Shown piece after piece: positions 4,550-53,960 of a stretch of DNA of 53,960 nucleotides. The position numbers and the translations under genes were made by a program. The notes below the pieces were generated by a model. That model was not told the origin of the DNA and made no database searches. It saw only the letters and a list, made by a program, of their open reading frames with translations. The stretch is taken from positions 1 to 53,960 of IMG/VR virus record IMGVR_UViG_3300032214_001699; one strand, written 5' to 3'. The first letter of the stretch is position 1. The number at the start of each line of letters is the position of its first letter. The DNA comes from a virus.

Positions 4550-6100
4550 TTATGCTGCCGGTGTTCCTGTAGGTACTGCTGGCTGCGCCGAAATTGGTGC
4601 TGTGGCTGTTGCGGCCGTTGCACCTGAAGCCGCAGAAGGCTCTGGCTCAGCAGCCCCATCCTGCGCCACTGCAGGCTCAACTTCCGTAGGTTGATTGCCT
4701 GCCGCCAACTCCATAATCGCTCGATTATTAGACAACATGCCCAACATCTTCGTAACTCTAACTAGAGCATAAGAATAAGAGTCGATGAGTTTGCTCTGAG
4801 CTTCAGACAGCTCAGGAAACATTGATGCAATACCTATCTTATCCAAGATTATATCGAATTCTGCCAAAAATCTTATAACCCTCCTATCAGATAACATTCC
4901 AGCGATTTGTTCGAGCTTCTTTGATGCATCATCAATATTTACTGAGGAGCTAATAACCTTATCATATTCGTTTGGCATTGGTCCAGGGATCGGAGTTACA
5001 TCCTTTATCATTTCCTCGCCAACCGTCTCATTTTGACGGTCCTGACTTCTTTTTTCTGCTGCAATTTCTTCTGGACTTTTTTCTGAAGTAGCTTCACTTG
5101 CCGGTGCCGCTACCACTTCGTTCGACCCTGGGGTAGGCTGCTGAGTTGCAGGGGCGGCAACAGTTGGGGAGGCGACTTCCTGGGCAAACTTTTTCAGTAT
5201 GTTTGCGCCATCAAGAAAGCCTATCTTTTGAAGTTGATTTGCAGTTCCGAATGATATATCCGAAGCAGTAGAGTGCAATCTAACTTTCCCAATCTGAACA
5301 TCGAGTTTGTGCAAGATCTCTGAGATTTGCTCATACTTATCTGGATCAACAAAATCTTCACTTTCTTTCAAGATTTTATCCATCCTTCTCCAAGCAGTGT
5401 TGAATTTCTTCTTCCATGTTTTATAAGAAGTTTTCATCTCAGCCTTATCTCTGGCGTCGTTGACAGAACTTTCAAAGGTGTGTGAGCTGCTCAGAGCATT
5501 TCCATAGTCGCGATCGCCACTGTAAGCATCTGTTCCATTCATTGGTAGGTAAAGTGATGATTGTTTTTTCATTTGCCCAATTCCATTTTCATTGCTATAT
5601 TTTTTATTATTACCATCATTATAATATTTTACCCATCTCTTAAATTTCATTCTTTCTTCTGGATCTTTTATTTTTAACGATGCCCTATCCAAAGATTCCG
5701 GGTAAGAGTACTTTCCCTCATAAAAATTCGAATAAATTTCTTTTACCAGTCCAGACCAAGCAACTAAATCATACTGTTTTTGATATATTTCAAAGATCTT
5801 ATCTCCGGATATGTTCGGATAAGCAACTTTTTTCATATCTGCATTTTCATCAGATGCTTTTGCCATATATAATTGAGAAAAAATTAAATGGTAGTAATCA
5901 GCGATTGTCTTGTAATTTTTGCGATCCCCACTATTATCACAGCTCTTCTTGATGATTTCTCGATCTTTAACGCCAAGCAGGTCTGCGGCAAGTTTTACTT
6001 TTGCAAAAAAAGAGTGATCTTCTTCGCTTTTTATTCCATATGTCTCTAGATTTATAAGTTCTTCATCTAGAAATTTGTTAAAATCATCTTTCATTTTCAT
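4550..6100 (-). CDS. Hypothetical virion-block protein with Ala/Pro-rich linkers and tail
   Basis: This 516-residue protein is not recognised. A charged, mostly helical first half (1-310) is followed by a low-complexity Ala/Pro/Thr linker (about 312-345), a second helical region (about 375-465) and a C-terminal Pro/Ala/Thr tail of about 45 residues. It overlaps the upstream 81-residue gene by 17 bases, suggesting translational coupling. The place between a putative small terminase and terL suggests a structural or portal-associated role, but no portal motif was recognised. Confidence 0.6.
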   Translation of the reverse strand: MKMKDDFNKFLDEELINLETYGIKSEEDHSFFAKVKLAADLLGVKDREIIKKSCDNSGDRKNYKTIADYYHLIFSQLYMAKASDENADMKKVAYPNISGDKIFEIYQKQYDLVAWSGLVKEIYSNFYEGKYSYPESLDRASLKIKDPEERMKFKRWVKYYNDGNNKKYSNENGIGQMKKQSSLYLPMNGTDAYSGDRDYGNALSSSHTFESSVNDARDKAEMKTSYKTWKKKFNTAWRRMDKILKESEDFVDPDKYEQISEILHKLDVQIGKVRLHSTASDISFGTANQLQKIGFLDGANILKKFAQEVASPTVAAPATQQPTPGSNEVVAAPASEATSEKSPEEIAAEKRSQDRQNETVGEEMIKDVTPIPGPMPNEYDKVISSSVNIDDASKKLEQIAGMLSDRRVIRFLAEFDIILDKIGIASMFPELSEAQSKLIDSYSYALVRVTKMLGMLSNNRAIMELAAGNQPTEVEPAVAQDGAAEPEPSAASGATAATATAPISAQPAVPTGTPAA

Positions 6101-11211: not shown

Positions 11212-12048
11212 TCACTCCAGATCGTCAAAAGGTGTTTCTTCAGAATCCAAGCCTTCGTGACTACTTGACATGGATGATACTGGACCATCTCCAGACAGAT
11301 ATCTCTCTCTGCAAGCCTCTTCAAGCAGTTCCATTTTAACTGGATCTTGCAAATAATCTAGTATGGCTTGCTTGCCGTTAAACTTTTCATTTCCATAGGC
11401 ATAGGTTTTGTTATTAGGTCTATCAACCAGTCCCATTAGGATGGCGAGGTTTAGGACTTCTTCATTCTTATTAATTATGCCCTTTGTGTATTTAACGGTG
11501 TAGATCGCTTCTCGGTAGGGCGCTCCGACTTTATTTTTCTGAATTTTTGCCTTAACCTTGTGTCCGACGATTTCTTCATTTTCATCTTCGACGCGATTGT
11601 CGGCGCCATTCATTGGTGCCATATTGATCATCACGCTACAAGCGTGCTTTAGAGCTTTTCCACCTGGCGAAGTATTGTGATTCAGGAATCCGTTTGCATA
11701 ATAATTGTGAGTCTTGTCTATAGTGAAATCAACAACAAACATCTTTTCATCAAGTCTCTTTGCTTCAGGATGCTCATCCGCTCTAATAAACTTAGAGGCT
11801 TCATCACTATACACTAGGTGTCCCGCTGTTGCCTTTAGGCTTCCGATCTGATAATAAAAATAAACTGGCTCTTTTACGATTAAGTTTTGTATCAACGAGT
11901 ATACTTTTTCTCCGGTTTCAAAATCGAAGCTTTCAATCTCTATGCCGCTGGATGAGACATCGAATATTCCCGGTTTTGAAAAATCAAAGTTACCTGCAAT
12001 TCTATCAAAGAGCTCATTTACGCTAACTTCCTGTTCAACAAAATTCAT
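11212..12048 (-). CDS. C-terminal half of split RecA/UvsX recombinase, fused behind the intein C-part
   Basis: This 278-residue ORF starts at ATG 12048 with a strong AGGAG site. Residues 1-125 are the C-terminal intein part and 126-278 are the RecA C-terminal half. The latter begins TSPGGKALKHACSVMINM, matching the RecA core after GNPE (RecA family: GNPETTPGGRALK). The end is acidic (ESEETPFDDLE-like), as in RecA C-tails. With the N-terminal half at 13155-13895 the spliced protein would be about 384 residues. The start overlaps the stop of the homing endonuclease gene. Trans-splicing is inferred, not shown. Confidence 0.85.
   Translation of the reverse strand: MNFVEQEVSVNELFDRIAGNFDFSKPGIFDVSSSGIEIESFDFETGEKVYSLIQNLIVKEPVYFYYQIGSLKATAGHLVYSDEASKFIRADEHPEAKRLDEKMFVVDFTIDKTHNYYANGFLNHNTSPGGKALKHACSVMINMAPMNGADNRVEDENEEIVGHKVKAKIQKNKVGAPYREAIYTVKYTKGIINKNEEVLNLAILMGLVDRPNNKTYAYGNEKFNGKQAILDYLQDPVKMELLEEACRERYLSGDGPVSSMSSSHEGLDSEETPFDDLE
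11674..12048 (-). other. Split-intein C-terminal part (IntC, 125 aa) of the fractured recA
   Basis: The segment carries intein blocks B (GSLKATAGHLVYS, with TxxH), F (FVVDFTIDKTHNYYANG) and G (GFLNHN, then extein Thr). It ends in the catalytic His-Asn pair. Block A is absent here and lies in the 15-residue part after GNPE in the other half. So the split lies very near the N-terminus, an atypical, short-IntN arrangement. No endonuclease is inside it. Confidence 0.85.
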
Positions 12049-13099
12049 TTTGCGCTCCTATTGCTTTTTTAATTATACTGCGAAGCTCATCTCTGCTTTG
12101 ATGAATATCTTGTTCCCAAATTACAATAATATTATATCCGAGTGACTTTAGATTATTGATTCTTTTTTGGTCCTTTTCCCAGATATCTTTTGCTAAAACA
12201 TTTGACATTACAACGTGGTCAGGTGAAAATAATCTGGGGTCTGCGTGCCAAAATGTACCATAGCACTCTATTATTATTTTTTTTAACTCTATTTTAAAAT
12301 CAGGATAATAAGCATTATAATCAAATCTTGTTTCGTGCTCATAGACCCAATCCTCAGATAGCTCCGTTAGAATGCTTCCGACTATAAACTCATTTAAATT
12401 CATTTTGTAGCCGTTTAGACTAAATTTCTTTTTGTATCTCAGGCTTTTAATTCTACTCTCTCTTTCCTCTGGAGGTAGGTTTCTCCATCTCTCTTTTGAC
12501 TTTAAGGAGATTTTCATCAACCTCGCTGGATTATTTACCGCCGCTATGAAATTATCCTTCACTTCTTTTTTATTCATTGTCTCTAGAAAAGACTTAATCC
12601 TCTTTTCTTTTGACTCATTGGAATGCAAAACTGACACGACTTTTTCTTTGTATTCCGCATTCTCAAATCTTTTTTTTGCAGCAGCTTTAATTTTTTCAGT
12701 CGCACCAGCCCTTGATCTGGCTAAATTTTGTTTATATGATTCTTTTTCTACAGCTAAGTTATAATTTTCTCTTTCTTTTTGCTTTATCTTTTTTAAATAC
12801 TCGTTACAAAAATCAAGATCTTCTTTTTTTGGGTTACAATTTCCCACCCAAAAAGAAACGCAATATTCTATATTGAAATATTTTTTTCTAAAACTATAAA
12901 GTTTTTTTGCAATCTCTTCATCTTTAAAATAATAATGAAAATATTTTTCAGATGAAGATGATATTGGAATTCTCTTTCCATTTTCAGATATAAAGAATGG
13001 TTTCTCTTTTTTTAAGAATTCTTTTTTTAAACTTATTTTAAAACAAGGTTTATCTTTTAATATTGAAAATGAAAAATCAAAGTACTCAGATTCTAACAT
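12035..13099 (-). CDS. Free-standing Vsr-like homing endonuclease between recA halves
   Basis: This 354-residue protein ends with a Vsr/PD-(D/E)XK-like fold: YYPDFKIE, then IIIECYGTFWHADP (with the active-site-like Asp, Glu, His), then KDQKRINNLKSLGYNIIVIW (about 265-345). The preceding region is Lys/Arg-rich with several repeats of the form ENAEYKEKVVSV / NPARLMKISLKSKERW, resembling modular DNA-binding repeats of homing endonucleases. By family knowledge, Vsr-like endonucleases were described as free-standing genes between split-intein halves (fractured genes). Its SD-like GGGGGG lies in the arm of a hairpin. It probably spreads the split-intein cassette. Confidence 0.8.
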   Translation of the reverse strand: MLESEYFDFSFSILKDKPCFKISLKKEFLKKEKPFFISENGKRIPISSSSEKYFHYYFKDEEIAKKLYSFRKKYFNIEYCVSFWVGNCNPKKEDLDFCNEYLKKIKQKERENYNLAVEKESYKQNLARSRAGATEKIKAAAKKRFENAEYKEKVVSVLHSNESKEKRIKSFLETMNKKEVKDNFIAAVNNPARLMKISLKSKERWRNLPPEERESRIKSLRYKKKFSLNGYKMNLNEFIVGSILTELSEDWVYEHETRFDYNAYYPDFKIELKKIIIECYGTFWHADPRLFSPDHVVMSNVLAKDIWEKDQKRINNLKSLGYNIIVIWEQDIHQSRDELRSIIKKAIGAQNEFC

Positions 13100-13104
13100 C
13101 TCGA

Positions 13105-13148
13105 CCCCCCATACTCTACGTTTTTATTAGCACATAGAGTATGGGAGG
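13105..13148 (-). promoter_or_regulatory. Hairpin between IntN stop and homing endonuclease ATG, covering the ribosome site
   Basis: An 11-bp perfect core (CCCATACTCTA 13108-13118 with TAGAGTATGGG 13135-13145) extended by G-C pairs on both sides. In the minus-strand RNA the 3' arm ends in GGGGGG five bases before the endonuclease ATG, so the fold would hide the ribosome site. It could also act as a terminator-like block after the N-half of recA, although the U-tract is lacking. A 9-base motif of the arm (CCCATACTC) recurs in the IntN codons. Confidence 0.6.
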
Positions 13149-13154
13149 GGGAAA

Positions 13155-13895
13155 TTAAACCGCGTATCTAATCTTCACTCTTGTTGAGTATGGGTCTACG
13201 CACTCCGGATTCCCATAAAGAACGCCGGGATCCACCCTCAACTGGTTGATAAAAATAAGCGCAACGTTGGCTTCCGCCACAGCAGGCGTAAGCTTTTTTA
13301 GCTCTGTAGATAAAAACCGTGGCATTGGCGCCATATTTTGCTTTCCAACGGATGCATCTGCTTCCATTGGCGTATTCATTGCGGCAACAGAATCAACAAC
13401 TATAACTCCAAGATTTTTGAATCTTGGATCCTCACCCTCTTTAACTAGATCCAAAACGCCTTTAACACTTTTGGTTGTTTTTCCAGTAGCCTTATTTGTA
13501 GTTGTTTTTCCAATCAGTCCTTCGAATATTTTCTTTGCATCATTTGTTTTTGCAACGATTATTCTTGATGTATCTAGACCAAGAGATTTTGCCCAAGAAG
13601 CATCATATGTAAATTCCGCATCAATAAACATGGCCGTATTTGATGGATGCTCATCAAGCCAACTCTTCATACATAGGAGAGACAAGAGCGTTTTTCCGGA
13701 GGATTCCTTTCCTGCCAGTTGGATAATTCTACCTCTCGGCATTCCGCCAACGCCCAATGCATAATCAAGTGATGCACTACCGCTGCGAATTACATCATAA
13801 GTTCCGACGGTATCAATGTCGCCATCCAGATAAAGACAGTCATCACCAAATAGGGATAGAAGTTCCTTTTCCCCTTCAGAAGCTTTTTTACTCAT
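13155..13895 (-). CDS. N-terminal half of split RecA/UvsX recombinase with short intein N-part
   Basis: Residues 1-231 are RecA-like: Walker A GKESSGKT (62-69), AMFIDAEFTYD, Walker B VIVVDSVAAM, and the L2-like FINQLRVDPGVLYGNPE. The frame then reads CVDPYSTRVKIRYAV and stops: a 15-residue IntN. ATG 13895 has a GGAG site. The RecA chain breaks exactly at GNPE, a conserved site, and continues with TSPGGKALK in the other gene, so this is a split-intein gene, not a frameshift. By family knowledge RecA/UvsX pairs homologous DNA strands. It lies next to GroEL no. 1 and near SSB and RuvC. Confidence 0.85.
   Translation of the reverse strand: MSKKASEGEKELLSLFGDDCLYLDGDIDTVGTYDVIRSGSASLDYALGVGGMPRGRIIQLAGKESSGKTLLSLLCMKSWLDEHPSNTAMFIDAEFTYDASWAKSLGLDTSRIIVAKTNDAKKIFEGLIGKTTTNKATGKTTKSVKGVLDLVKEGEDPRFKNLGVIVVDSVAAMNTPMEADASVGKQNMAPMPRFLSTELKKLTPAVAEANVALIFINQLRVDPGVLYGNPECVDPYSTRVKIRYAV
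13158..13202 (-). other. Split-intein N-terminal part (IntN, about 15 aa)
   Basis: Cys-initiated peptide CVDPYSTRVKIRYAV directly after GNPE, ending at the TAA at 13155. Only block A is present. With the 125-residue IntC it totals about 140 residues, a mini-intein length. Its shortness makes it comparable to atypically split inteins with short N-parts known from environmental phage genes. Confidence 0.75.
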
Positions 13896-13912: not shown

Positions 13913-15556
13913 TCAGTAGTTATGATTTAGATTTGATGTTGAAGGTGGACGCCATCCAGCCGGAGGTTGCCACCCAGAAGGGTTTGCCAAATCTTCGGAT
14001 AGTACAGCCTCTGTATTTAGAAGAAGTAATGTTATACTTACCGCATTTTGAATGGCGGTTTTAGTAACCTTCTTTGGATCTAAAACGCCCATTTCAAGCA
14101 TATCGCCGTACATTCTCCCATGTAGATTATACCCATACCAATAATTATTTTCAGACAAAATTCTGGATTCGACCTCACTAGGATCTTGGTAGCCGTTCTC
14201 AATTATCTGATAAAATGGACGCTTGCACGCACGCACGAGCACGTCTGCAGCCGCTCGATACTCTTGTGGCACCTGCTCCATCCGTATTGAAGCTGCGGCC
14301 CTTAGAAGGGCAATTCCGCCCCCAGGAAGTATACCGGATTCTATTGCGGCCTTTGTTGCACAAACGGCATCTTCTACTCGATCTCCCTTCTCTCGTAACT
14401 CTGCTTCGGTTGAATACGCAACACCTATAACAGCTGCTTTGTTATTTAGAAACGCAAGTCTCTCTCTGATGTCTTTTCGATCCATATCTCCAATTACATT
14501 TTCGAGAGCTTCTCGATAAAGCTTGCTCTTCTCTCTTATCGAAGACTCATTTTTTCTACCACCAATAATTGTTGTGAAGTATCTTGAGACGGTTATTTTT
14601 TCTGCAAATCCTAAATCATGAACGACCGCACTCGAAAGAGGTAAGCCATGGTCTTCCCCATAAACCTTTGTCCCGCACAGAATTGCCAGATCGGATAACC
14701 ATTCGGAGTTATTCTTTCCCATCACCGGGTACTCTACCGTTACTGCATTAAGCCTTCCCTGCTTTCGGTTTAGAGCAATCATATCGATTGCCTCTTGCCT
14801 AATCGTCTTTGCAATGATAAGGATTGGTCGATTCTCCTTGTGAAGCTGCTCTAGAACTTGAACGAAATCTTGAACGTGAGTGATATCGCGCTCACAGATA
14901 AGCACATAAGCATTCTCTAGCGTGATTGGATCCTCGTCTTTCTTTAAGATTGCGGAGGTGGAATATCCAGCCTTTAGCTCTACGCCATCTGTATATTTCA
15001 CTCGGTTTTCTGTTCCAGCATAAGCTTCTGCGGTAACCAAACCATTTCTGCCAACCTTCTCAAAAGCTTCTGCAATCACAGAGCCAAGTCCGTTATCATT
15101 ATTCGCAGAAATTGAAGCAATATGTCTTATTTCATCAAATGACTCTATATCTCTAGAGTTCTGATCCAAATGTTTCAGTATGAGTGAGGTCGTGTAATTT
15201 AGACCGTCGCGAAAAAAGATTGGATTAATTCCAGAGGAAATTGTCTGCATACCCTCAGATAGAATTGCTTCTGCGAGAACTGTTGCTGTGGTTGTTCCAT
15301 CTCCAGCAACGTCCGCTGTTCGCCCAGCAACCTCTTTTATCAGCCTGCATCCAAGCTCTTCAACAGGATCTTCTAGTACAACCTCTCGTGCAACGGAAAC
15401 TCCATCTTTTGTGATTGTTGGTGCACCAACAAATTTGCCAAGGATGACATTCCTTCCATGTGGACCCATAGTCACTGAGACTGTTTTTGCCAGCTTCTTT
15501 GCACCAACAACAATCTTCTCTCTAGCTTCATTACCATAAACGATTATCTTTGACAT
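13913..15556 (-). CDS. groEL: Chaperonin GroEL/Hsp60 homologue no. 1
   Basis: I place the start at ATG 15556 (MSKIIVYGNEAREK, 547 aa) after AAGAGGT; a longer frame to 15601 overlaps ruvC and adds non-GroEL residues. The family signature is clear: VTMGPHGRNVI, KDGVSVAREV, AGDGTTTATVLAE (ATP-binding Asp), RVEDAVCATKAA and GILPGGGIALLR. By family knowledge GroEL folds proteins in an ATP-driven barrel. The C-terminus is Trp/Pro-rich (GWQPPAGWRPPS), not the GGM repeats of bacterial GroEL. The gene differs widely from the second GroEL at 51920. No GroES gene is visible in the window. Confidence 0.95.
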   Translation of the reverse strand: MSKIIVYGNEAREKIVVGAKKLAKTVSVTMGPHGRNVILGKFVGAPTITKDGVSVAREVVLEDPVEELGCRLIKEVAGRTADVAGDGTTTATVLAEAILSEGMQTISSGINPIFFRDGLNYTTSLILKHLDQNSRDIESFDEIRHIASISANNDNGLGSVIAEAFEKVGRNGLVTAEAYAGTENRVKYTDGVELKAGYSTSAILKKDEDPITLENAYVLICERDITHVQDFVQVLEQLHKENRPILIIAKTIRQEAIDMIALNRKQGRLNAVTVEYPVMGKNNSEWLSDLAILCGTKVYGEDHGLPLSSAVVHDLGFAEKITVSRYFTTIIGGRKNESSIREKSKLYREALENVIGDMDRKDIRERLAFLNNKAAVIGVAYSTEAELREKGDRVEDAVCATKAAIESGILPGGGIALLRAAASIRMEQVPQEYRAAADVLVRACKRPFYQIIENGYQDPSEVESRILSENNYWYGYNLHGRMYGDMLEMGVLDPKKVTKTAIQNAVSITLLLLNTEAVLSEDLANPSGWQPPAGWRPPSTSNLNHNY

Positions 15557-15564
15557 AAGACCTC

Positions 15565-16128
15565 TTACTTTGTCTTTTTTTGGTTTTTTATAGCGTGACA
15601 ATAAGCAACGGCAATTGCATCAGCTTGATCGAAATATTCCTTAGATATATTTCCAACCTTATTCAGGCCAACCTTAAAAGTTGGAAAGGTCGTCTTCATT
15701 AAGTTGAATATATCATCCTTTGATACGCTCTTGATATTTAAGCACTTTGATATTGTTGAGCGTATACTTGTTACCGGATATTTGTCAGTTTCAAATTTTA
15801 AAGTTTGCAAACAAATTAAAGAAGTTAGCTCATTAAAAAAGGATAGGACTATAATTGTTCTTGCCGTACTTCTTCCTGCCGTAAATCTGCTTGCATATGA
15901 TTCTACTGCAACATGATCTGGATTTTCTTTCTCAAGAAGTTCTTTTATTTTTTCAGACGCTTTCATGGCCCGAAATGTCAAACTTCCCTTTGATGATGGC
16001 GGCGGCTTGATATGACCCGTCTTTATCAGGCTCATGCTGTTATCATCGTATTCTATTATTGCGTACCCAATTGTGCTTGAAGATATATCTAAACCTAAAA
16101 CTTTTGGCATAGATATAGTATACTGCAT
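15565..16128 (-). CDS. ruvC: RuvC-like Holliday junction resolvase
   Basis: The protein reads MPKVLGLDISSSTIGYAI from ATG 16110 (181 aa); an in-frame ATG at 16128 directly abuts the terminator U-tract and would add six residues. RuvC signatures are the first acidic strand (GLDISSST, Asp8), the HVAVES strand (Glu70, near GYASRF-like ESYASRF) and the C-terminal DQADAIAVAYCHA acidic pair. By family knowledge it cuts Holliday junctions. The stop lies 8 bases upstream of groEL. No Shine-Dalgarno motif is visible before either ATG. Confidence 0.8.
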   Translation of the reverse strand: MQYTISMPKVLGLDISSSTIGYAIIEYDDNSMSLIKTGHIKPPPSSKGSLTFRAMKASEKIKELLEKENPDHVAVESYASRFTAGRSTARTIIVLSFFNELTSLICLQTLKFETDKYPVTSIRSTISKCLNIKSVSKDDIFNLMKTTFPTFKVGLNKVGNISKEYFDQADAIAVAYCHAIKNQKKTK

Positions 16129-19405: not shown

Positions 19406-22400
19406 TTACTCCTTTATTCCGAAAATTTCTATTAGCTCTGATAGCGAAAGACTCTTTTGCCCAAGATACTCATCGACCTTGCATATTGCCTTAAATGGTA
19501 TTCCATCTTTAAACTTTGTGCCATACTTTTCGTAATCATCCATCCATAAAGTAATTTCGGATGTATCTCCAAAAAGATCCTCGATGAGGTATTTTGCAAA
19601 TTTTCTTCCTAAGTTTTTACCCTGTTTTACTTTAAATTCCTTAACCTTTGTTTTTATAATTGCCTCAACCCTAATCTTTGAGCCGGGCTTGTAAGAGTTC
19701 AGATCTTTAAGTTTGAAGGAAGCCGCCATGTTTCTAAAGAATCCAGAGAAAATCTCATGAGAATTTCCTGAAATAGTTCTTCCCAAGACCTCCCTTTCAT
19801 TGTAAAGCAATTCCTTTCTGTCCCACTCATCAATCGGTGGTGGAAAATCTTGCTCAACTAAACTCTTACCCTTTTTTATACCGTTTTTAAGCTTAACCCT
19901 AAAGTCATCATAGTTCTCAAAAATATCCTTTCTGGTTCTACCAAAAGAGTCCATTGCGCCGGATCTTACAAGCGATTGTATTGAGGACTTTCCAATGAAA
20001 GGTAGAATCTCAACTTTATTTTCTTTTGTAGCAGGCTTTCCGAGTTTTAGGAATTCATACGAGGTCAATTCATTGCCCTCGAAAGAAACCGTGATTCCTT
20101 TCATGATAAAGTCTGTAAAATTATTGAATGGTTGCTTCCTCATAATCTCAGAAATGGCTGCTGGACCAAGACCTTTGATCGCAGATAGCCCTGTTGCAAT
20201 AACCTTATCCTCAATGACCTTATAATTTTCTGCGCTCTTATTTACATCGGGAGGAACAATCTTAATGCCAAGTCTCTTACATTCATTTAGATATTCTTGA
20301 ACCTTATCGCTATTTGGATCTTCTCCATTGAGAAGTGCGCACATAAATTGTGATGGATAGTTGCACTTTAACCAAGCAGTTTGCACGGAAATAATGGAGT
20401 ATGAAATCGCATGAGAGTTTGATGTAAGTATGCCATTGGTCAGATAGTATTGATGATCTGGATGATCGACTTCCAAATCATAAGTATCAAACTCTCCAAT
20501 CTCAAAAAATGAAGTTATTGACGCAAAACGATGTTCAAGCCCATCGCTCTCATTTCTGCGCAAAACTATGGAAGCCTGCTCCTTCAGAATCTGGTGTAGC
20601 GGCAGCATTCTGCCGTCCGTCGTTCTGAATTTGTGGTTGATTGTGCATCCTACTGTTTCCCCGGAGTCAAGAGTTATTTTGAAAAGTTTCAGCTTTCCGT
20701 GGTAATGATTTCCCAGCACTTTCACTGGAATATCCTGCCCGGTGGCCTCATCTCTGGATAGGACCGTGCTTCCAATTTGTACGTCTTTTATTTCAACGTC
20801 TTTCCAAAAAACTTCGTTATTTTGAATAACCCTGATTAATTGGGAATAAACCAATGATCTGTTAAAACCATATCCACTGAAACTAGAGATTTCTTCGTCC
20901 CATATCTTCTGACCATCCTCATAAGACATGCCCCATTTTTCCATGCATCCCTTGATGAAGTTTGCCTCAGTTTTGAGAGCCAACTGAGGGTCCTTACCCT
21001 TCAACTTTGTCAGCTTTCTCAAGTTGTCTGCTTCGTTCAGATCCCATCCTGCACATTCTCGTGCAATACCCATCATGCTTTCCTCATAAAGAGAAATACC
21101 GTAAGTATCCTTTAGGACTGGCTCTAGAGATTGGTGTGTATAACGAACTCGGTCCTGTCCGAATCGTCTGCGAATATAGCTTTGACGTTGTTCTGATGGA
21201 CAGCTTGGGCGCCCAAGAGCGTTAATGGCTGCGACCGTATCAACATCGGTTGGTTTGATCTTCGCACAAAGAGGTGATAGGGAAGACTCAAGTTGGAATA
21301 CACCAATATTTTCACCGCGAGAAATCATCTTATAAGTTTCTGGATCATCAAGCCTAATATCGGAAATTTTAATATCCTTATTTTCTGTTGTCTCTCGGAT
21401 ATATTTTAGGCAGTCCTCAATGACGTTTAGCGTATTCAGTCCGAGAACGTCCATTTTTACAAGGCCATAGTCCTCTACCCTGGTTTTCTCCCACTGAGTA
21501 ACTGTGATAGATTCACCTGTCTTTTCATCCTCCTCAATTCTTAGTGGAATGATTTCGTAGAGAGGTTTATCACCAATAATTACACCGGCGGCATGAACAG
21601 ACCACTGGCGAGTTAGGTTCTGCAACTTAGAAGAATAATCTTTTACCTCAGGATATTGCTTCATAAACTTTGAGAATTCTTTGCTACCATCGATAGCCTC
21701 TTCAATTGTATCAACATCGGGCATAATTGAGGTAAGATGATTTGCAATTTCAAATGCAGACTTTTTATCGCCACCAATCTCAAGACTTCTGGCCACGTCC
21801 TTTAGAACAACCTTTGGAGACATTGTTGACCAGTTGCTGATTTGAGCAACATAATCTTTTCCATATTTGTCTTTTATATAAGTCTTTACACGATCTGGAT
21901 TTGAGAAGTCACAATCAATATCGGGGAAGGCTTTCTTCTCCCTGTTGTGAAATCGTTCGAAAAGAAGGTTATATTTAATTGGATCAACCGACGTGATTGA
22001 TATTAAGAATGCTACGAGAGATCCTGCAGCGCTCCCTCTTCCGCTTCCGACAGTTACTCCGTTTTGCTTTGCCCAACCTACATAATCAGAGACAATTAAC
22101 ATGTAAGAGGAGAAGTTTCTCAACTCAAGAATGGAGAGTTCGTACTTAACTCGGTTCCAATATTCCTTCTTCTTTTCTGGCGAGAAGGATTCCGTAAACT
22201 GCTCAAAGCCAAGTACGCACTTATATCGAAGATAAGCTTTGTCTATAGGAAGCTCTTCGCAGCTCTCCTCCCACCAGGTTCTAAACTCCGGATAATCTGG
22301 CTGATTCTTCACAGGGAATTGTGGAAGGATTGCTCCTTTTGACTTTAGATAGTGAGGCTCTTCGCAGGCGGAAGCAATCTTTAGAGAGTTGTTCATCGCC

Positions 22401-23200
22401 ATAATTCCGATTCGACTACCGAAGAAATCAACAATCTCAGAGTGAGATTTGAGATACATTTCCTGAACGCCATAGCGAAAGCGGTCTGGATCTGAAAGAG
22501 GCTTCTTGTCTTTAATTGCAAGCATCATATCATGATATTTTGCGTGCTCTTTATCTAGATAATGAGCATCGCATGTTGCAACAAAAGGAATATCGTGCTT
22601 TCTGGATAGATTTATAAGATTCTCGTTTAGCTTTACCTGATCTACTTTTCCATCATCTGTCTTCAGTGCATGAGGTTGGATTTCGAGAAAAAGACGATCC
22701 CGAAAAACAGAGTGAAGCCTTACAAGATTTGATTCTGCGGCATCCATATTGTCAGAAACAATATCTTTAGATAGAAGACCATTTGAACATGCTGTTAGAC
22801 AAAAAATGTCCGAATTGAATTTTTCGATATGTTCCCATGAAATTCTGGGTGTCATTTTACCCATGTAACCGGAAGCCTGATTGTTGTAAGCCTCATAGTT
22901 TAGACGAAGAATGTTTTTATAGCCATTCTCGTTTTTTGGAACAAGAACCATATGAGATGATTTTTTCTCAGATAGATCGGGCGCAAAATAAGCTTCCATG
23001 CCGGGAATCAATTTTACGCCTGTACGCTGAGAAGCACCATATGCGTCATGATGAGATCCTAGAACGCCATGGTCCGTGATTGCTATCGCCGGATGATCAA
23101 GCTCTTTTGCTCTATCAAAAAGATCATCGACTTTATTTAAAGCATCTAGCGTTGAAAACTCAGTGTGGTTATGAAGCGAAACAAATGGTCCGTTAGGCAT
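19406..23200 (-). CDS. dnaE: DNA polymerase III alpha-type polymerase (DnaE, PHP family) with intein
   Basis: 1264 residues, 1117 after splicing. The PHP domain (1 to about 220) has HNHTEFS (9-15) and ITDHG, with acidic and His residues typical of the active PHP nuclease. The C-family core has GSGRGSAAGSL, the catalytic Asp pair in FPDIDCDFSN, and YEESMMGIARECAG. The chain then reads SGYGFNR, an intein, SHAISYS...TAWLKCNYPSQFM, as in bacterial DnaE. The C-terminus is an OB-like region. By family knowledge this is the replicative polymerase. No separate beta clamp, DnaQ or DnaX was seen in the window. ATG 23200 has AGGAT before it. The gene is followed by glutamine synthetase after 2 bases. 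Confidence 0.95.
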   Translation of the reverse strand: MPNGPFVSLHNHTEFSTLDALNKVDDLFDRAKELDHPAIAITDHGVLGSHHDAYGASQRTGVKLIPGMEAYFAPDLSEKKSSHMVLVPKNENGYKNILRLNYEAYNNQASGYMGKMTPRISWEHIEKFNSDIFCLTACSNGLLSKDIVSDNMDAAESNLVRLHSVFRDRLFLEIQPHALKTDDGKVDQVKLNENLINLSRKHDIPFVATCDAHYLDKEHAKYHDMMLAIKDKKPLSDPDRFRYGVQEMYLKSHSEIVDFFGSRIGIMAMNNSLKIASACEEPHYLKSKGAILPQFPVKNQPDYPEFRTWWEESCEELPIDKAYLRYKCVLGFEQFTESFSPEKKKEYWNRVKYELSILELRNFSSYMLIVSDYVGWAKQNGVTVGSGRGSAAGSLVAFLISITSVDPIKYNLLFERFHNREKKAFPDIDCDFSNPDRVKTYIKDKYGKDYVAQISNWSTMSPKVVLKDVARSLEIGGDKKSAFEIANHLTSIMPDVDTIEEAIDGSKEFSKFMKQYPEVKDYSSKLQNLTRQWSVHAAGVIIGDKPLYEIIPLRIEEDEKTGESITVTQWEKTRVEDYGLVKMDVLGLNTLNVIEDCLKYIRETTENKDIKISDIRLDDPETYKMISRGENIGVFQLESSLSPLCAKIKPTDVDTVAAINALGRPSCPSEQRQSYIRRRFGQDRVRYTHQSLEPVLKDTYGISLYEESMMGIARECAGWDLNEADNLRKLTKLKGKDPQLALKTEANFIKGCMEKWGMSYEDGQKIWDEEISSFSGYGFNRSLVYSQLIRVIQNNEVFWKDVEIKDVQIGSTVLSRDEATGQDIPVKVLGNHYHGKLKLFKITLDSGETVGCTINHKFRTTDGRMLPLHQILKEQASIVLRRNESDGLEHRFASITSFFEIGEFDTYDLEVDHPDHQYYLTNGILTSNSHAISYSIISVQTAWLKCNYPSQFMCALLNGEDPNSDKVQEYLNECKRLGIKIVPPDVNKSAENYKVIEDKVIATGLSAIKGLGPAAISEIMRKQPFNNFTDFIMKGITVSFEGNELTSYEFLKLGKPATKENKVEILPFIGKSSIQSLVRSGAMDSFGRTRKDIFENYDDFRVKLKNGIKKGKSLVEQDFPPPIDEWDRKELLYNEREVLGRTISGNSHEIFSGFFRNMAASFKLKDLNSYKPGSKIRVEAIIKTKVKEFKVKQGKNLGRKFAKYLIEDLFGDTSEITLWMDDYEKYGTKFKDGIPFKAICKVDEYLGQKSLSLSELIEIFGIKE
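20417..20857 (-). other. Mini-intein in DnaE (147 aa, Ser1)
   Basis: In-frame insert between GYGFNR and SHAISYS. It starts with Ser (SLVYSQLIRVIQ) rather than Cys, has block B CTINHKF (TxxH), block F EFDTYDLEVDHPDHQYYLTN and ends LTSN before extein Ser. The penultimate residue is Ser instead of His. No LAGLIDADG or HNH motif, so it is a mini-intein. The site is within the conserved C-family motif. Confidence 0.9.
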
Positions 23201-43739: not shown

Positions 43740-44036
43740 CTAAAAATCTACTTTTACTGTTCCAAGTCCAACAACCTGTATATTGTATTTTTCCTGAGAT
43801 ACATCCATTGGCTTTTCCGATTCTTCATCTATTCTTCGAACAACAGTTTTTGCCTTTGGTTTTACGACTTCTTTAATCTCTGAGGTTTTTTCTTTTTCAG
43901 CTGGAGATAATCTGGTACGAAGATTTAAGATGGATTGATGTAAGCTTTCAAGTTCGATCAAAGATTCAGAATGAGATCTCTTAAGTCTCGATATTGTAAG
44001 AAGCATCATATCGATTTCGTGATTTAGATCGCTCAT
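43740..44036 (-). CDS. Hypothetical helical protein
   Basis: 98 residues. The first half is helical (EIDMMLLTISRLKRSHSESL), the second is Lys/Glu-rich and ends with a beta-like stretch (IQVVGLGTVKVDF). Its ATG overlaps the IMP dehydrogenase stop (ATGA). Function unknown. Confidence 0.6.
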   Translation of the reverse strand: MSDLNHEIDMMLLTISRLKRSHSESLIELESLHQSILNLRTRLSPAEKEKTSEIKEVVKPKAKTVVRRIDEESEKPMDVSQEKYNIQVVGLGTVKVDF

Positions 44037-45526
44037 ATTTTCGTTCCGAAGGCATGTGATTCTGAGAGTCCGGATTGTGTTATTTTTATGAATCTTGCGT
44101 TGTGCCTAAGCTCCTCTATGCTTGAAGCGTTCACATAAGTCATTCCAGACCGAAGCCCTCCAGCGAATTCATAAATAACTTCAGAAACCTCACCAGAAAT
44201 CGGCACATAAGTTGAAACACCTTCAGCGCAAGTCGATGGCTTAAGACCTCCTCTCTTTTCCTGTTGCAATTCGCTAGAGGCCATTCCCCTGTATTTTTTC
44301 TTAAATGATTGAGCTTCTTCATCCCAAATCTTTTCGCCTGGAGCTTCAAGTGAAGACGCCAAGATTCTTCCGCATATAATGGCATCTGCTCCAGCAGCAA
44401 GTGATTTTACAAAATCTGCCGGATACCGAATTCCTCCATCAGCAATGATGCCTACGTTGGAATATTTCGGATTCTGTAAGCGAACTTCATTACTCTCAAA
44501 TACGGAATGTAGAGTTGGAGCACCCATTGCGGTTTGAATGCGTGTTTTGCATATACTATTATGAACAACAATTCCGTTTACATTATATGAGTGATCTTCT
44601 TCGACAGTCAGATCATGCACTGATCCAACATAATGCTTGCTTTCTTTTGAATTTATTTCAACTAATTTAAACTTCATCTCAGCTATCAACTCAATAAGGA
44701 GGTGAGTTTGCTGATCGAGATGTTCTGCTTCCACCCAGAAAGCATACTGGTGTATGTTTTGCTCATCAGTCAAATGCTGGTTATATTTTTTTATAACATA
44801 GAATTCATGATTCTTTGTGCATCCGATTCCATTGATTGAAACTATCTCTTCGTCTCTTTCGAACTTCATCGTATCTATTACAGATTTCCAAGAGCCAGTA
44901 TGAGTCAGGACGACATCTCCAATAGAAATATCTTCTATTGATTTCTGACCACCCTTTGTTAGAACTTTTGTCCCAGGGACAAAGCAGCCTCCTCCGATAC
45001 CAACCCTTACAGCATCGGCCCCTGATTCTGCAAGATACAAGAATCCTTCTCCAGTAGCAACGTTACCAGAGATAATCTTTGTATCTGGCGAGATAGACTT
45101 TATGTCCCAAATCATCTCTCTCATGTATGATGAGTGACCATTCGCAACATCGATTGCAACTGCATCAAGCGGAACTTCGCGGCTTAGAGACTTGAATCTT
45201 TCAAGCTCTTCCTTCCCGATACCAATCGCAGGAATTTTTGCAATATCTATCTTTGTCTCAGACTCGGCCCGAAGAATATCCTTTATGTTTGAAATCTGAG
45301 ATGATACATCCATAAATCTATGGACAATCCCAATTCCACCGCATTTTGCCATAGCTATAGCCATGGCCGATTCTGTGACAGTATCCATTGGTGATGAAAT
45401 AATTGGAATTCTGAGCTTCATCCCGGCAACCATAGAAACGGTTACTGGAACTGTTCTAGATCTAATTTGGGTGTAGCAAGGCTTAATCAAAACGTCGTCA
45501 AACGCCAAACATTCCGTAATATTCAT
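44033..45526 (-). CDS. guaB: IMP dehydrogenase with intein
   Basis: Start ATG 45526 (497 aa; the GTG three codons earlier has no better site) after AGGTGATA. Extein residues 1-180 and 324-497 form a GuaB barrel: [55 protein letters not shown] / [14 protein letters not shown] (catalytic Cys loop), [31 protein letters not shown] and [13 protein letters not shown]. The CBS domains of bacterial IMPDH are absent (spliced length 354). By family knowledge it makes XMP for GTP. The intein interrupts the catalytic loop directly before SIC. Confidence 0.95.
44558..44986 (-). other. Contiguous mini-intein in IMP dehydrogenase (143 aa)
   Basis: Starts Cys ([20 protein letters not shown]), ends VNGIVVHN before extein Ser. 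Block B is CTKNHEFYV, block [15 protein letters not shown]. No endonuclease motif. It sits at GIGGG/SIC, the same insertion site and with close sequence resemblance (from memory) to the environmental split intein IMPDH-1, whose halves end LLIEL and begin MKFKL. Here these meet in one frame ([16 protein letters not shown]). Confidence 0.93.
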
Positions 45527-45531
45527 GTCTA

Positions 45532-46101
45532 TCACCTATTTACGATATATCGGCTTGTATAAATTTCTTCGATCTTTCTTGCAAAGTCTTCAGACGTGGT
45601 TGATCTCCAGTCGAATCCAATACAAAGTCTCTCATACCAATAATGAGCAATTTCATGAGCAAATATGATATGAGTTGTTTCGAACGTATGATTTGTAACG
45701 GATATTGCATCAATTGCGTTCTTATGGCGAAGAGGATCGTAATACCCCCAAATTGACCCAAAACCTTTCTGGTCCGTGCTCACAATATATCCTGGAATGT
45801 TAAGCTCTTCAAAGGAAACTTCGTATAGTTCCAGATAATCTTTTGTATCACAGCCCTCTTTATAATTAGCCTTAATATAGTCTAGTGATATTTCACTCGC
45901 AACCTGAATGCTTTCTTTTAGATAATATTCTGGAACATAGGACTCATTCCTAATATATGACTTATATGTTATTGTTTTTTGCCGAACAGCCAGCGTTTGC
46001 TCTGGATAATGATGTTGCGACATAACTTTAAGCTCATTGTATGGCTCTGCGGCAAATGAGACGGCATTAAGAAAAAGTGCGGCTGAGAGCATTATTTTCA
46101 C
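45532..46101 (-). CDS. Exported HEIAH zinc metallopeptidase-like protein
   Basis: 189 residues from GTG 46101 (MKIMLSAALFLNAVSFAAEP), which overlaps the upstream TGA (GTGA); ATG 46092 is an alternative with better ribosome spacing. The N-terminus is a signal peptide with an A-x-A-like end (SFAAE). HEIAHYWYERL (149-159) is an HExxH zinc motif and E170-I175 downstream may supply a further ligand. It would be exported to the periplasm or membrane. It is placed between IMP dehydrogenase and a small gene. By analogy it may modify the envelope or host proteins; family unassigned. Confidence 0.65.
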   Translation of the reverse strand: MKIMLSAALFLNAVSFAAEPYNELKVMSQHHYPEQTLAVRQKTITYKSYIRNESYVPEYYLKESIQVASEISLDYIKANYKEGCDTKDYLELYEVSFEELNIPGYIVSTDQKGFGSIWGYYDPLRHKNAIDAISVTNHTFETTHIIFAHEIAHYWYERLCIGFDWRSTTSEDFARKIEEIYTSRYIVNR

Positions 46102-47830: not shown

Positions 47831-48865
47831 TCAGAGAGTTAGACCTTCAACTAAATTCATGTTTGAAGAAAAATAAATCTTCTCTACTTCTGGACAGAAG
47901 GTGTGAATTCTATCCTGTATAAAAGATTTCATCTCATCCAGAGAATTAAATGAAAGTAACTCTTTATGATAAAATAATTTAAAAACTTTAACATCATCAA
48001 GCACATCACATTTAGATATAATTAGATGATTTCCTCCCGCCGCATTTAAGGCAAATATCATTCTATCTACATCCAGATAATTTACCTTTCGCCTTCTGCC
48101 TGTTGTTGTTCCGAATTCATTTCCAGAAACACAAATTGCAGCCAGTTCTGGATTTTCAAAAAGAGACTCTGGAAATAAGGGGTCTTCTCCGGACCTTGTG
48201 TCATATATTTTGGATACCGCAAAAATATTCCTAATTTTCTTCGGTGAGAAACCAAGACTGCAGGATGCATATGGAAGAGTCTCTGATGATGTTACATAAG
48301 GATAGTTTCCCCAGTTAATGTCGAGATAAAATCCCTGTGCTCCCTCACAGAGGATGTTTCCGTGAAGCTTCCCGTTGAAAAGGTATTTTCCCCACTGTGG
48401 GGCCTGCTCAACTATATCTTTAAACTGAATTCCTGTCCTGGCGTATTTATCTGCATATGCTGGAGCGATACCCTTTGATGTTGTACCAAGCCTTTTTGCC
48501 AAATTATTCTTATCGTACTCCATATGTGCTCTAGTCACAATATGTGTACTTCCATAAATTTTAACCAGAGAGTCATCAAACCCATTCGATCTGAGATATT
48601 CCATTTCTTCCGCAAGAAGGTCCAAATTTAATACGCATCCTGGCCCTATTAGAGATGTCGTTCCATGGAACACTCCTGCGGGAACCATGTGGGTTTTGTA
48701 CTTCTTGCCTGCGACATAAACCGTATGCCCAGCGTTTTGACCACCACCCCATCTAGTTACAAAGTCATAATCTCCTATCTCTGATAAGTAGCTTGAAACC
48801 TTACCTTTGCCACAGTCGCCATAAGATGCGTCATATATCACATCTGCAAAATTTATAACGCTCAT
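47831..48865 (-). CDS. Adenylosuccinate synthetase-like protein (PurA family)
   Basis: 344 residues from ATG 48865 (MSVINFADVIYDASYGDC), after GGGGGAT. Motifs: YGDCGKGK (16-22) is the PurA GDEGKGK loop with the catalytic Asp kept and Glu changed to Cys; NAGHT (His47); GTTSKGIAPAYADKYARTGI; EGAQGFYLDINWGNYPYVTS; TTTGRRRKVNYLD. Bacterial PurA is about 430; this is closer in length to the phage PurZ group, but PurZ has Ser instead of the catalytic Asp. By family knowledge PurA joins IMP and aspartate with GTP on the way to AMP. It lies with IMP dehydrogenase. Confidence 0.85.
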   Translation of the reverse strand: MSVINFADVIYDASYGDCGKGKVSSYLSEIGDYDFVTRWGGGQNAGHTVYVAGKKYKTHMVPAGVFHGTTSLIGPGCVLNLDLLAEEMEYLRSNGFDDSLVKIYGSTHIVTRAHMEYDKNNLAKRLGTTSKGIAPAYADKYARTGIQFKDIVEQAPQWGKYLFNGKLHGNILCEGAQGFYLDINWGNYPYVTSSETLPYASCSLGFSPKKIRNIFAVSKIYDTRSGEDPLFPESLFENPELAAICVSGNEFGTTTGRRRKVNYLDVDRMIFALNAAGGNHLIISKCDVLDDVKVFKLFYHKELLSFNSLDEMKSFIQDRIHTFCPEVEKIYFSSNMNLVEGLTL

Positions 48866-48982
48866 AAAAATCCCCCAGCTCTTAAGGAAGTTGATGATAA
48901 AAATCAATACGTCCTTCATTATACCTGTGGATTTTATTCAAACAAGACCATTTATTAATTAGGGAGAAATATAATTTTGTGG

Positions 48983-51919: not shown

Positions 51920-53542
51920 CTATTTTTTTATTTGTTCAAGTTCAGTCATATCTTCAAATATACAAACTTCCGTTGTAAGTAATGTACCTACCGCAGAAAC
52001 AGCGTGCTGAACTCCCATCTTAACTACCTTAACAGGATCTATAATCCCTCGATCCATCATATCTGGAATAAACTCGCCTCTAAGGGCATCAAAGCCGCAA
52101 AATCCTCCGGACTCCCTAATCTTCTGCTGAGCTTCGAAGTGCTCGAACCCAGCATTACTCATAATTTGCCTGAACGGCTCTTTTAAAGCATCCCTTAGAA
52201 TCCTCAGTCCCGCCAACTCTTCTGGTAAAAATTTCTTCACCTCGTCTGAAGAAATAAAAGAACTTAGCGAATCTGAGGCCTGAATTAGGGCCGAACCGCC
52301 GCCAGGAACAATTCCCATTTCAATAGCTGCACGAACGGCATTTAGAGCGTCTTCCACTCTATCTTTGCGCTCTCTCATCTCGCTCTCTGTTGCGCCGCCA
52401 ACCCTGAAGATTGCCGCTCCTCCGGAAAGTTTTGATATTCGTTCTTTTACAGATGATGCCTGAACATCAAAAAGCTCTCTTGACCCAAGCTGTTCTTTTA
52501 GCGCCGAGATTCTCGACTGAATAGAGCTCCTACTTCCCGCACCATCGATAATGGTTGTGCTGTTTCTGCTGACAACAATTCGTCGGGCTCTACCCAAATC
52601 TTCTATTTCAACATTCTTTAGTGCCTGACCGGATTGATTGTCAAAGACCCTTCCTCCAAGGAGGATTGCGAGATCCTCAAGCATATCTCTCCTGGTATCA
52701 CCAAAGCCTGGGGCCTTTATTGCGCAGCAGATTAGGCCAGCTTTTTGACGGTTCAGAACGAGAGTTGCCAGCGCCTCGCCATCGATATCTCTTGCTATGA
52801 TTAGGAATGGTCTACCGACACCATGAACCTTTTGGATTATGGATAGAAAGTCTTGTGATGAAGATATCTTATCGTCGTAAAGAATAACGAAAGGATTCTC
52901 CAATTCACAATTCATTTTTTCAAGATTCAAAACAAATGCAGGAGATACGAAACCTCTAGCAAGCTGAATCCCTTCTGTGTAGGTAACCTGAGTTAGGCCT
53001 CCTGTTGAGTCCTCCACAGAAATTACTCCGTCCTCACCAACGGTGGATACGACTTCGCCAACAAGTGCGCCCAACTCCGAATCATTATTCGTTGATATTG
53101 TCGCAATACTCTTGAGGGAGTCTTCATCATTTACTGGTCTTGCGAGTTGGTCAAGGAATGAGATTACTCTACTAAGACCAATATCCATACCTCTCTTAAG
53201 AAGTACGGGGTTATGGCCAGCCGCAATCATCTTTATACCTTCATTAAAGATCGATTGAGCGAGAACTGTAGCTGTAGTTGTACCATCACCAGCAGCAGTG
53301 TTTGTTGCGGAGGCAACCGTCTTTATTAGCTGGGCACCCATATCCTTTACGGGATCTCTTAAATTTATAGATTTCGCAACCGTAACGCCATCCTTTGTGA
53401 TTAGCGGTGGTCCATACTCCCTTTCTATTGCCGCATGACGACCTCTTGGACCAAGAGTTGCTTTAACTGCATTAGCCAAAACATTTACGCCGACCTGAAT
53501 TTCAGATCTGGCATCAGCACCAAACTTGACTTCTTTAAACAT
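51920..53542 (-). CDS. groEL: Chaperonin GroEL/Hsp60 homologue no. 2
   Basis: 540 residues from ATG 53542 (MFKEVKFGADARSEIQ), overlapping the methyltransferase stop by 8 bases; the longer frame adds a basic extension unlike GroEL. Signatures: KATLGPRGRHAA, KDGVTVAKSINLRDP, AAGDGTTTATVLAQSIF (ATP-binding Asp), RVEDALNAVRAAIEMG and GIVPGGGSALIQ. The C-terminus is CIFEDMTELEQIKK; no GGM tail. It differs from GroEL no. 1 along its length, so this is not a recent duplicate. No GroES is visible. By family knowledge it folds proteins and may serve particular virion proteins. Confidence 0.95.
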   Translation of the reverse strand: MFKEVKFGADARSEIQVGVNVLANAVKATLGPRGRHAAIEREYGPPLITKDGVTVAKSINLRDPVKDMGAQLIKTVASATNTAAGDGTTTATVLAQSIFNEGIKMIAAGHNPVLLKRGMDIGLSRVISFLDQLARPVNDEDSLKSIATISTNNDSELGALVGEVVSTVGEDGVISVEDSTGGLTQVTYTEGIQLARGFVSPAFVLNLEKMNCELENPFVILYDDKISSSQDFLSIIQKVHGVGRPFLIIARDIDGEALATLVLNRQKAGLICCAIKAPGFGDTRRDMLEDLAILLGGRVFDNQSGQALKNVEIEDLGRARRIVVSRNSTTIIDGAGSRSSIQSRISALKEQLGSRELFDVQASSVKERISKLSGGAAIFRVGGATESEMRERKDRVEDALNAVRAAIEMGIVPGGGSALIQASDSLSSFISSDEVKKFLPEELAGLRILRDALKEPFRQIMSNAGFEHFEAQQKIRESGGFCGFDALRGEFIPDMMDRGIIDPVKVVKMGVQHAVSAVGTLLTTEVCIFEDMTELEQIKK

Positions 53543-53960
53543 TCTCTTCACTCTCCGTGTTTTCAATAAATATGTTACTATAAGATTTTTTTATTTTTTG
53601 ATACAAAGAGGGATTGTTTATTAGGGCCTGAGACAGCGGATCCGTTCCGGCAAATGGATCTGCAACTACGAAGTTTTCACCCGATGCCTGTAGCAAAATA
53701 TCTTCCCATATCTCCTTCGGCTTTGCAGACAGGTGGGTTCCGGTTGGTTTTCGATAAGAAAAGAGATTGCCCTTTTTTACAACAAACTTTGAGGGCTTTC
53801 CCTTTGATACATAAATTATGTATTCCACTTGGTTTCGCCAGTGATATCCCATGCCTATCGATTTCTTATCCCAAACAAGGATGTTCCTAAAAGTCCATCC
53901 CGACTTTTCCAAGCCATCCTTCGTGAAGAAAAGACCGTCTCGATTACAGAAGACATAAGC
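53535..53960 (-). CDS. DNA methyltransferase (N6-adenine/N4-cytosine type), 5' end beyond window
   Basis: The frame is open to the right edge, so the N-terminus is missing. Visible: WTFRNILVWDKKSIGMGYHW, VEYIIYVSKGKPSKF, and motif I VVADPFAGTDPLSQAL near the C-terminus, so target-recognition and catalytic motifs come first, as in beta-class methyltransferases, where motif I is last. DPFAGTD varies from the usual DPFxGSG. It probably modifies phage DNA against host restriction. The DPPY motif would lie beyond the window. The stop overlaps groEL no. 2. Confidence 0.8.
   Translation of the reverse strand, partial: AYVFCNRDGLFFTKDGLEKSGWTFRNILVWDKKSIGMGYHWRNQVEYIIYVSKGKPSKFVVKKGNLFSYRKPTGTHLSAKPKEIWEDILLQASGENFVVADPFAGTDPLSQALINNPSLYQKIKKSYSNIFIENTESEENV

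What the first reader, a model, noticed from the sequence alone, without database searches (positions are those of the whole stretch)
44558..44986. Unsplit relative of the IMPDH-1 split intein
Same GIGGG/SIC site and blocks as the well-used split intein IMPDH-1 (recalled sequence), but LLIEL and MKFKL are joined through IAE in one frame. This may be the ancestral or fused form and would show how splitting arose.
Basis: partly seen in the sequence, partly recalled or inferred. Interest (0 to 1): 0.8.

Follow-up and report, generated by a model that had tools for sequence, protein, structure and literature searches.

The report
Re-fused phage IMPDH split intein
A virus gene carries a self-cutting protein insert whose closest relatives are made as two separate pieces, and the family tree indicates that this one-piece form arose by re-joining the pieces after a DNA-cutting gene between them was lost.

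Summary
Window 44558-44986 (-) is an intact 143-aa class 1 mini-intein at the GIGGG|SIC loop of an IMPDH/GMP-reductase-family gene in a phage contig, all in one frame. The segments matching the two halves of split intein IMPDH-1 are joined by IAE (44678-44686).

The 'ancestral' reading is not supported. About 50 distinct inteins of this family were recovered; 41 of the 49 in the tree are split, most with a homing-endonuclease gene between the halves. The window's nearest relative (L047, 72% identical intein, syntenic locus) is split with an intact endonuclease gene. Both lie in a 100/98-supported clade whose 11 other members are all split, including near-copies of IMPDH-1. A clade of those 11 excluding the window is rejected (AU p=0.019). 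Within the clade spacers of about 800, 112, 59, 17 and finally 9 nt in frame (window) occur, and the C-half start codon survives as internal Met104.

Best explanation: secondary fusion of a split intein after endonuclease loss, giving a cis-splicing mini-intein that no longer homes. Contiguous forms recur about seven times in the tree, so splitting here looks reversible. Splicing is predicted, not shown.

The parts
44033..45535 (-). ORF of the IMPDH/GMP-reductase-family precursor with intein, 500 aa (GTG at 45535; an ATG lies at 45526)
   Evidence: PF00478 313.7 bits
44987..45535 (-). N-extein, 183 aa, ending GIGGG
   Evidence: intein-free relatives L098/L099 run straight through the site
44558..44986 (-). 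contiguous mini-intein, 143 aa, C1 to N143
44687..44986 (-). segment homologous to the split N-half (100 aa, ends LLIEL)
   Evidence: N-halves of L047, L013, L009-L012 end at this point with a stop codon
44678..44686 (-). 9-nt joint ATAGCTGAG (IAE) in place of the stop codon, endonuclease gene and start region of relatives
44558..44677 (-). segment homologous to the split C-half (40 aa), beginning with the former start codon ATG (Met104)
   Evidence: C-half genes of L047, L013, L009-L012 start with this Met
44033..44557 (-). C-extein, beginning SICKTR; Cys at +3 matches the IMPDH catalytic cysteine
   Evidence: position by established knowledge of the IMPDH family

Best explanation
A cis-splicing mini-intein in a phage IMPDH-family gene that arose by secondary fusion of a split intein of the IMPDH-1 kind. 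The ancestor had the 'fractured gene' arrangement: N-extein plus N-half, stop codon, free-standing homing-endonuclease gene, start codon, C-half plus C-extein, joined by trans-splicing. The endonuclease gene was deleted (inferred; relatives show intermediates). The last deletion removed the N-half stop from the frame and turned the C-half start codon into internal Met104 (inferred from the joint). The product should fold as one Hint domain and splice in cis by the class 1 path (C1 thioester, S+1 branching, N143 cyclization), restoring GIGGG-SIC in the active-site loop. With no endonuclease at this locus it can no longer drive its own homing.
For: One-frame intein with all catalytic residues and a very confident Hint-fold model. 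Careful intein tree: window+L047 (split, intact endonuclease gene) 100/93; with L013 (split, endonuclease) 94/88; 12-member clade 100/98 with 11 split, including IMPDH-1-like L009-L011. The 11 split ones as a clade excluding the window: p-AU 0.019; all contiguous inteins as one clade: p-AU 3e-44. A two-state model with only contiguous-to-split changes fits far worse (lnL -35.9) than one with only split-to-contiguous changes (-22.5), also without L050 (-28.1 against -19.0); probability that the window/L047 ancestor was split is 0.76-1.0 by model. L047 and L013 endonucleases are reciprocal best matches (54.5%, 286-302 bits; next best 213 or less) with near-identical 5' spacers. Series in the clade: L011 828 nt, L047 805, L010 112 nt holding the endonuclease 3' end of L011, L056 59, L052 17, window 9 nt in frame. 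Among eight contiguous inteins of the family only the window keeps Met at the C-half start. Syntenic relatives with empty, split and fused sites exist.
Against: Splicing is predicted, not measured. The asymmetric two-state model leaves up to a quarter of the probability for a contiguous window/L047 ancestor, and within the 12-member clade alone the states do not decide direction. The placement of L013 is moderate: grouping it with the other split ones is not rejected (p-AU 0.12). The nine joint bases fit two deletion histories, so no unambiguous remnant is left. If endonuclease genes often invade contiguous inteins at this site, repeated splitting could mimic the pattern. One assembly only; the exact joint was not found in other viral contigs.
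Confidence: 0.83

Rival explanations
1. The window keeps the ancestral unsplit intein, and its relatives were split independently when homing-endonuclease genes inserted at the same site, bringing a stop and a start codon with them.
For: Contiguous inteins occur at the same site in bacterial GuaB genes and in viral L086, so the deepest ancestor was probably contiguous. Intein and endonuclease distances are only loosely correlated (rho 0.32), so endonucleases may move. In L050/L070 (85-88% identical DNA) only a patch of about 42 nt differs around the joint, and its direction is not settled.
Against: The window is nested two nodes deep among split inteins; a contiguous-to-split-only model is much worse; L047 and L013 carry sister endonucleases with the same 5' spacer; Met stands exactly at the C-half start in the window only.
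Confidence: 0.12
2. Assembly artefact: the endonuclease gene was lost in assembling mixed phage populations.
For: Single metagenomic record; the exact joint was not found elsewhere.
Against: The joint is in frame and short, no repeat was noticed that would cause a collapse, and seven other contiguous inteins exist in independent records.
Confidence: 0.03
3. A decayed, non-splicing intein in a dead gene.
For: No activity data; IMPDH equivalog score is below the curated cut-off.
Against: All catalytic residues and the whole frame are kept and the model is confident; the gene sits in a conserved purine-gene neighbourhood.
Confidence: 0.05

Closest known systems
IMPDH-1 split intein (Dassa et al. 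2009; Carvajal-Vallejos et al. 2012)
   Same: Same insertion site GGG|SIC and blocks; 62-64% identity over the N-half to near-copies L009-L012
   Different: IMPDH-1 is two genes and trans-splices; the window is one gene with the halves joined by IAE
Fractured genes with a free-standing homing endonuclease (Dassa et al. 2009)
   Same: Relatives L047, L013, L009, L011 and many others have this arrangement
   Different: No endonuclease gene at the window's IMPDH locus; the window's recA locus does show the arrangement
Laboratory-fused split inteins gp41-1 (6QAZ), NrdJ-1 (8UBS), Aes123 PolB1 (9HTH)
   Same: Single-chain Hint fold built from two halves
   Different: Those are fused by design; here the fusion is natural and apparently secondary. 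Sequence identity only 14-20%
Bacterial GuaB inteins at the same site (L091-L097)
   Same: Insertion before SICTTR
   Different: Distant sequence, contiguous, in ORFs of up to about 900 aa, so with a large insert

Membership tests
Class 1 intein | Cys/Ser at position 1, block B TxxH, C-terminal His-Asn, Cys/Ser/Thr at +1 | tested here: met
   C1, T57-H60, H142-N143, S+1
Class 1 intein | Hint fold | tested here: met
   AlphaFold2 pLDDT 97.2, pTM 0.90; top Foldseek matches are inteins and Hint domains, probability 1.00
Class 1 intein | Self-splicing | not testable with these tools
   needs expression
IMPDH-1-type intein lineage | Same insertion site and common ancestry with IMPDH-1 | tested here: met
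   GIGGG|SIC; clade 100/98 with L009-L011. IMPDH-1 is represented by stand-ins, its published sequence was not retrieved
Natural split intein | Halves on separate ORFs | tested here: not met
   single open frame 44033-45535
Fractured gene | Endonuclease gene between the halves | tested here: not met
   9 nt between the halves
IMP dehydrogenase (TIGR01302) | Score above the curated cut-off | tested here: not met
   270 bits against 481.5; GMP reductase models also below cut-off
IMPDH/GMP reductase superfamily (PF00478) | Score above the gathering cut-off | tested here: met
   313.7 bits against 25.6

The most novel reading that the evidence does not exclude
Natural splitting of inteins is reversible. 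At the IMPDH site phages have re-fused split inteins on about five to seven separate occasions after losing the intervening endonuclease gene, so the split state is a stage in a homing cycle, and the window is a case that still shows the old start codon.
Probability: 0.6. Interest if true: 0.65.

Novelty: new variant of a known kind. Interest (0 to 1): 0.55.

Why it matters
Split inteins are major protein-engineering tools, and how they arise and persist is mostly argued from single examples. Here one orthologous phage locus shows empty, split-with-endonuclease and fused states, and one clade spans all spacer lengths from a full endonuclease gene to a 9-nt in-frame joint. That makes the direction of change testable, suggests that splitting is not a dead end, and offers natural cis/trans pairs (window and L047) for asking what a half loses or gains on fusion. 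A natural fusion of a fast split intein may also be a practical starting point for contiguous and newly split variants.

Tried and rejected
A direct scan with the whole window IMPDH found nothing; the intein alone and alignments worked. The published IMPDH-1 letters were searched for in the papers and not found, and no solved IMPDH-1 structure turned up. Isolated phages: no match covers 80% of the window protein, and the only full-span intein-like matches, in Lak phages, were not in an IMPDH gene in the one record read. Rejected: that the window is the only unsplit member; that the contiguous forms are one lineage (p-AU 3e-44). Considered and left open: whether ATAGCTGAG is the N-half stop region (TTGGACTAG losing 2 nt gives TTGATAG) or the endonuclease tail (ATAGAAGAG in L047). 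Considered and left open: the direction of change in L050/L070. A literature search for natural re-fusion found none in the held library, which lacks the key 2009 paper, so priority is not established.

Full report
Observation. The ORF 44033-45535 (-) encodes a 500-aa IMPDH/GMP-reductase-family protein (PF00478) interrupted by a 143-aa intein at 44558-44986. The class 1 catalytic residues are present. AlphaFold2 with an alignment of the window, contiguous relatives and separate halves gives pLDDT 97.2 and pTM 0.90, with the joint in a short turn between strands 95-102 and 105-110; the nearest solved structures are inteins and Hint domains, among them gp41-1 and the fused NrdJ-1. The record is an IMG/VR virus contig with phage-like genes.

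Relatives. Scans of viral contigs gave about 50 distinct inteins of this family at this site: 30 split with an endonuclease-sized gap, 12 split with a short gap, 9 contiguous (window and L086 included). The split always falls at the same place, after LLIEL or its equivalent. The ORF in the gap of the window's split relative L047 is a NUMOD3-bearing endonuclease, and nearly all endonucleases of the family are related. L009-L012 are near-copies of IMPDH-1 as recalled. Intein-free alleles exist in syntenic relatives L098 and L099 (60% identity).

Direction. In the careful intein tree the window joins L047 (100/93), then L013 (94/88), inside a 12-member clade (100/98) whose other 11 members are split. 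Excluding the window from the 11 split ones is rejected (p-AU 0.019), and so is one origin for all contiguous inteins (p-AU 3e-44). The contiguous label needs seven changes on the tree, five of them forced by well-supported branches. A model allowing only contiguous-to-split change is far worse than one allowing only the reverse, with or without the pair L050/L070. The endonucleases of L047 and L013 are each other's best match and share the spacer upstream. The simplest history is that the ancestor of window, L047 and L013 was split with an endonuclease gene, and the window lost it.

Series of decay. Within the same clade the spacer is 828 nt (L011), 805 (L047), 112 (L010, still holding the endonuclease 3' end seen in L011), 59 (L056), 17 (L052) and 9 nt in frame (window). 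A parallel exists in another clade: L024 has the endonuclease gene; in L004 it is reduced to a remnant read out of frame, and the C-half ATG follows the N-half TAG directly, in the same frame. Such forms are one step from fusion. The window alone among contiguous members keeps Met where the C-half gene starts. The joint bases ATAGCTGAG do not tell which deletion made it.

Locus history. The window locus (adenylosuccinate synthetase, DHH protein, HEAT protein, IMPDH, AAA ATPase, VWA protein) is conserved in L047, L086, L098, L099, L100 and L101. In the extein tree the window is sister to intein-free L098/L099 (98), with L047 further out, while the intein is closest to L047 (72%, against 52% for the IMPDH extein). 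This suggests the intein moved between these phages, as expected while an endonuclease was present, or was lost in L098/L099. That step is inference.

Mechanism. The expected work is ordinary cis-splicing that rebuilds the IMPDH active-site loop; the catalytic cysteine is at +3, so the enzyme should be inactive until splicing (from knowledge of the family). Whether the enzyme is an IMP dehydrogenase or a GMP reductase is not settled: both equivalog models score well below cut-off.

Limits. No splicing data, one assembly, an IMPDH-1 sequence known only from memory and stand-ins, and a literature library that lacks the founding paper. The claim is 'secondary fusion', at about 0.83; the broader claim of repeated re-fusion is at about 0.6.

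Noticed in passing
window 11212-13895 (-): A fractured recA gene: N part 13155-13895 ends GNPE|CVDPYSTRVKIRYAV* (an intein N-half of only 15 aa, equal to the record-short natural N-half of PolB16 named in PMC13014065), a Vsr-like endonuclease ORF 12035-13099, then 11212-12048 with the intein C part ending HN|TSPGG and the rest of RecA. A scan for relatives found none.
   Followed up: partly
window 13095-13165 (-): A very stable hairpin (-32.8 kcal/mol, z -6.1) between the recA N part and the endonuclease ORF, taking in the G-rich stretch just before the endonuclease start codon; it could hold back endonuclease translation.
   Followed up: partly
window 19406-23200 (-): DNA polymerase III alpha with a contiguous mini-intein between GYGFNR and SHAISYS, beginning with Ser and ending TSN.
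   Followed up: no
window 13913-15601 and 51920-53566 (-): Two different GroEL-family chaperonin genes in one phage contig.
   Followed up: no
window 47831-48919 (-): Adenylosuccinate synthetase-family gene two genes upstream of the IMPDH neighbourhood, below the cut-offs for both PurA and the amino-adenine enzyme PurZ.
   Followed up: no
L047 C-extein, from 6112: A second intein in the same IMPDH gene, 347 aa with a LAGLIDADG domain, at YRGMA|SKEVQ; one gene thus holds a split and a contiguous intein.
   Followed up: partly
L050 and L070: Two phages with 85-88% identical DNA, one with a contiguous and one with a split IMPDH intein plus endonuclease; only about 42 nt around the joint differ beyond the insert. 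A near-direct view of a recent switch, direction unknown.
   Followed up: partly
L004-L007, around 5301-5367: Split intein whose N-half reads into an endonuclease remnant and stops at TAG directly followed by the C-half ATG in the same frame: one codon short of fusion.
   Followed up: partly
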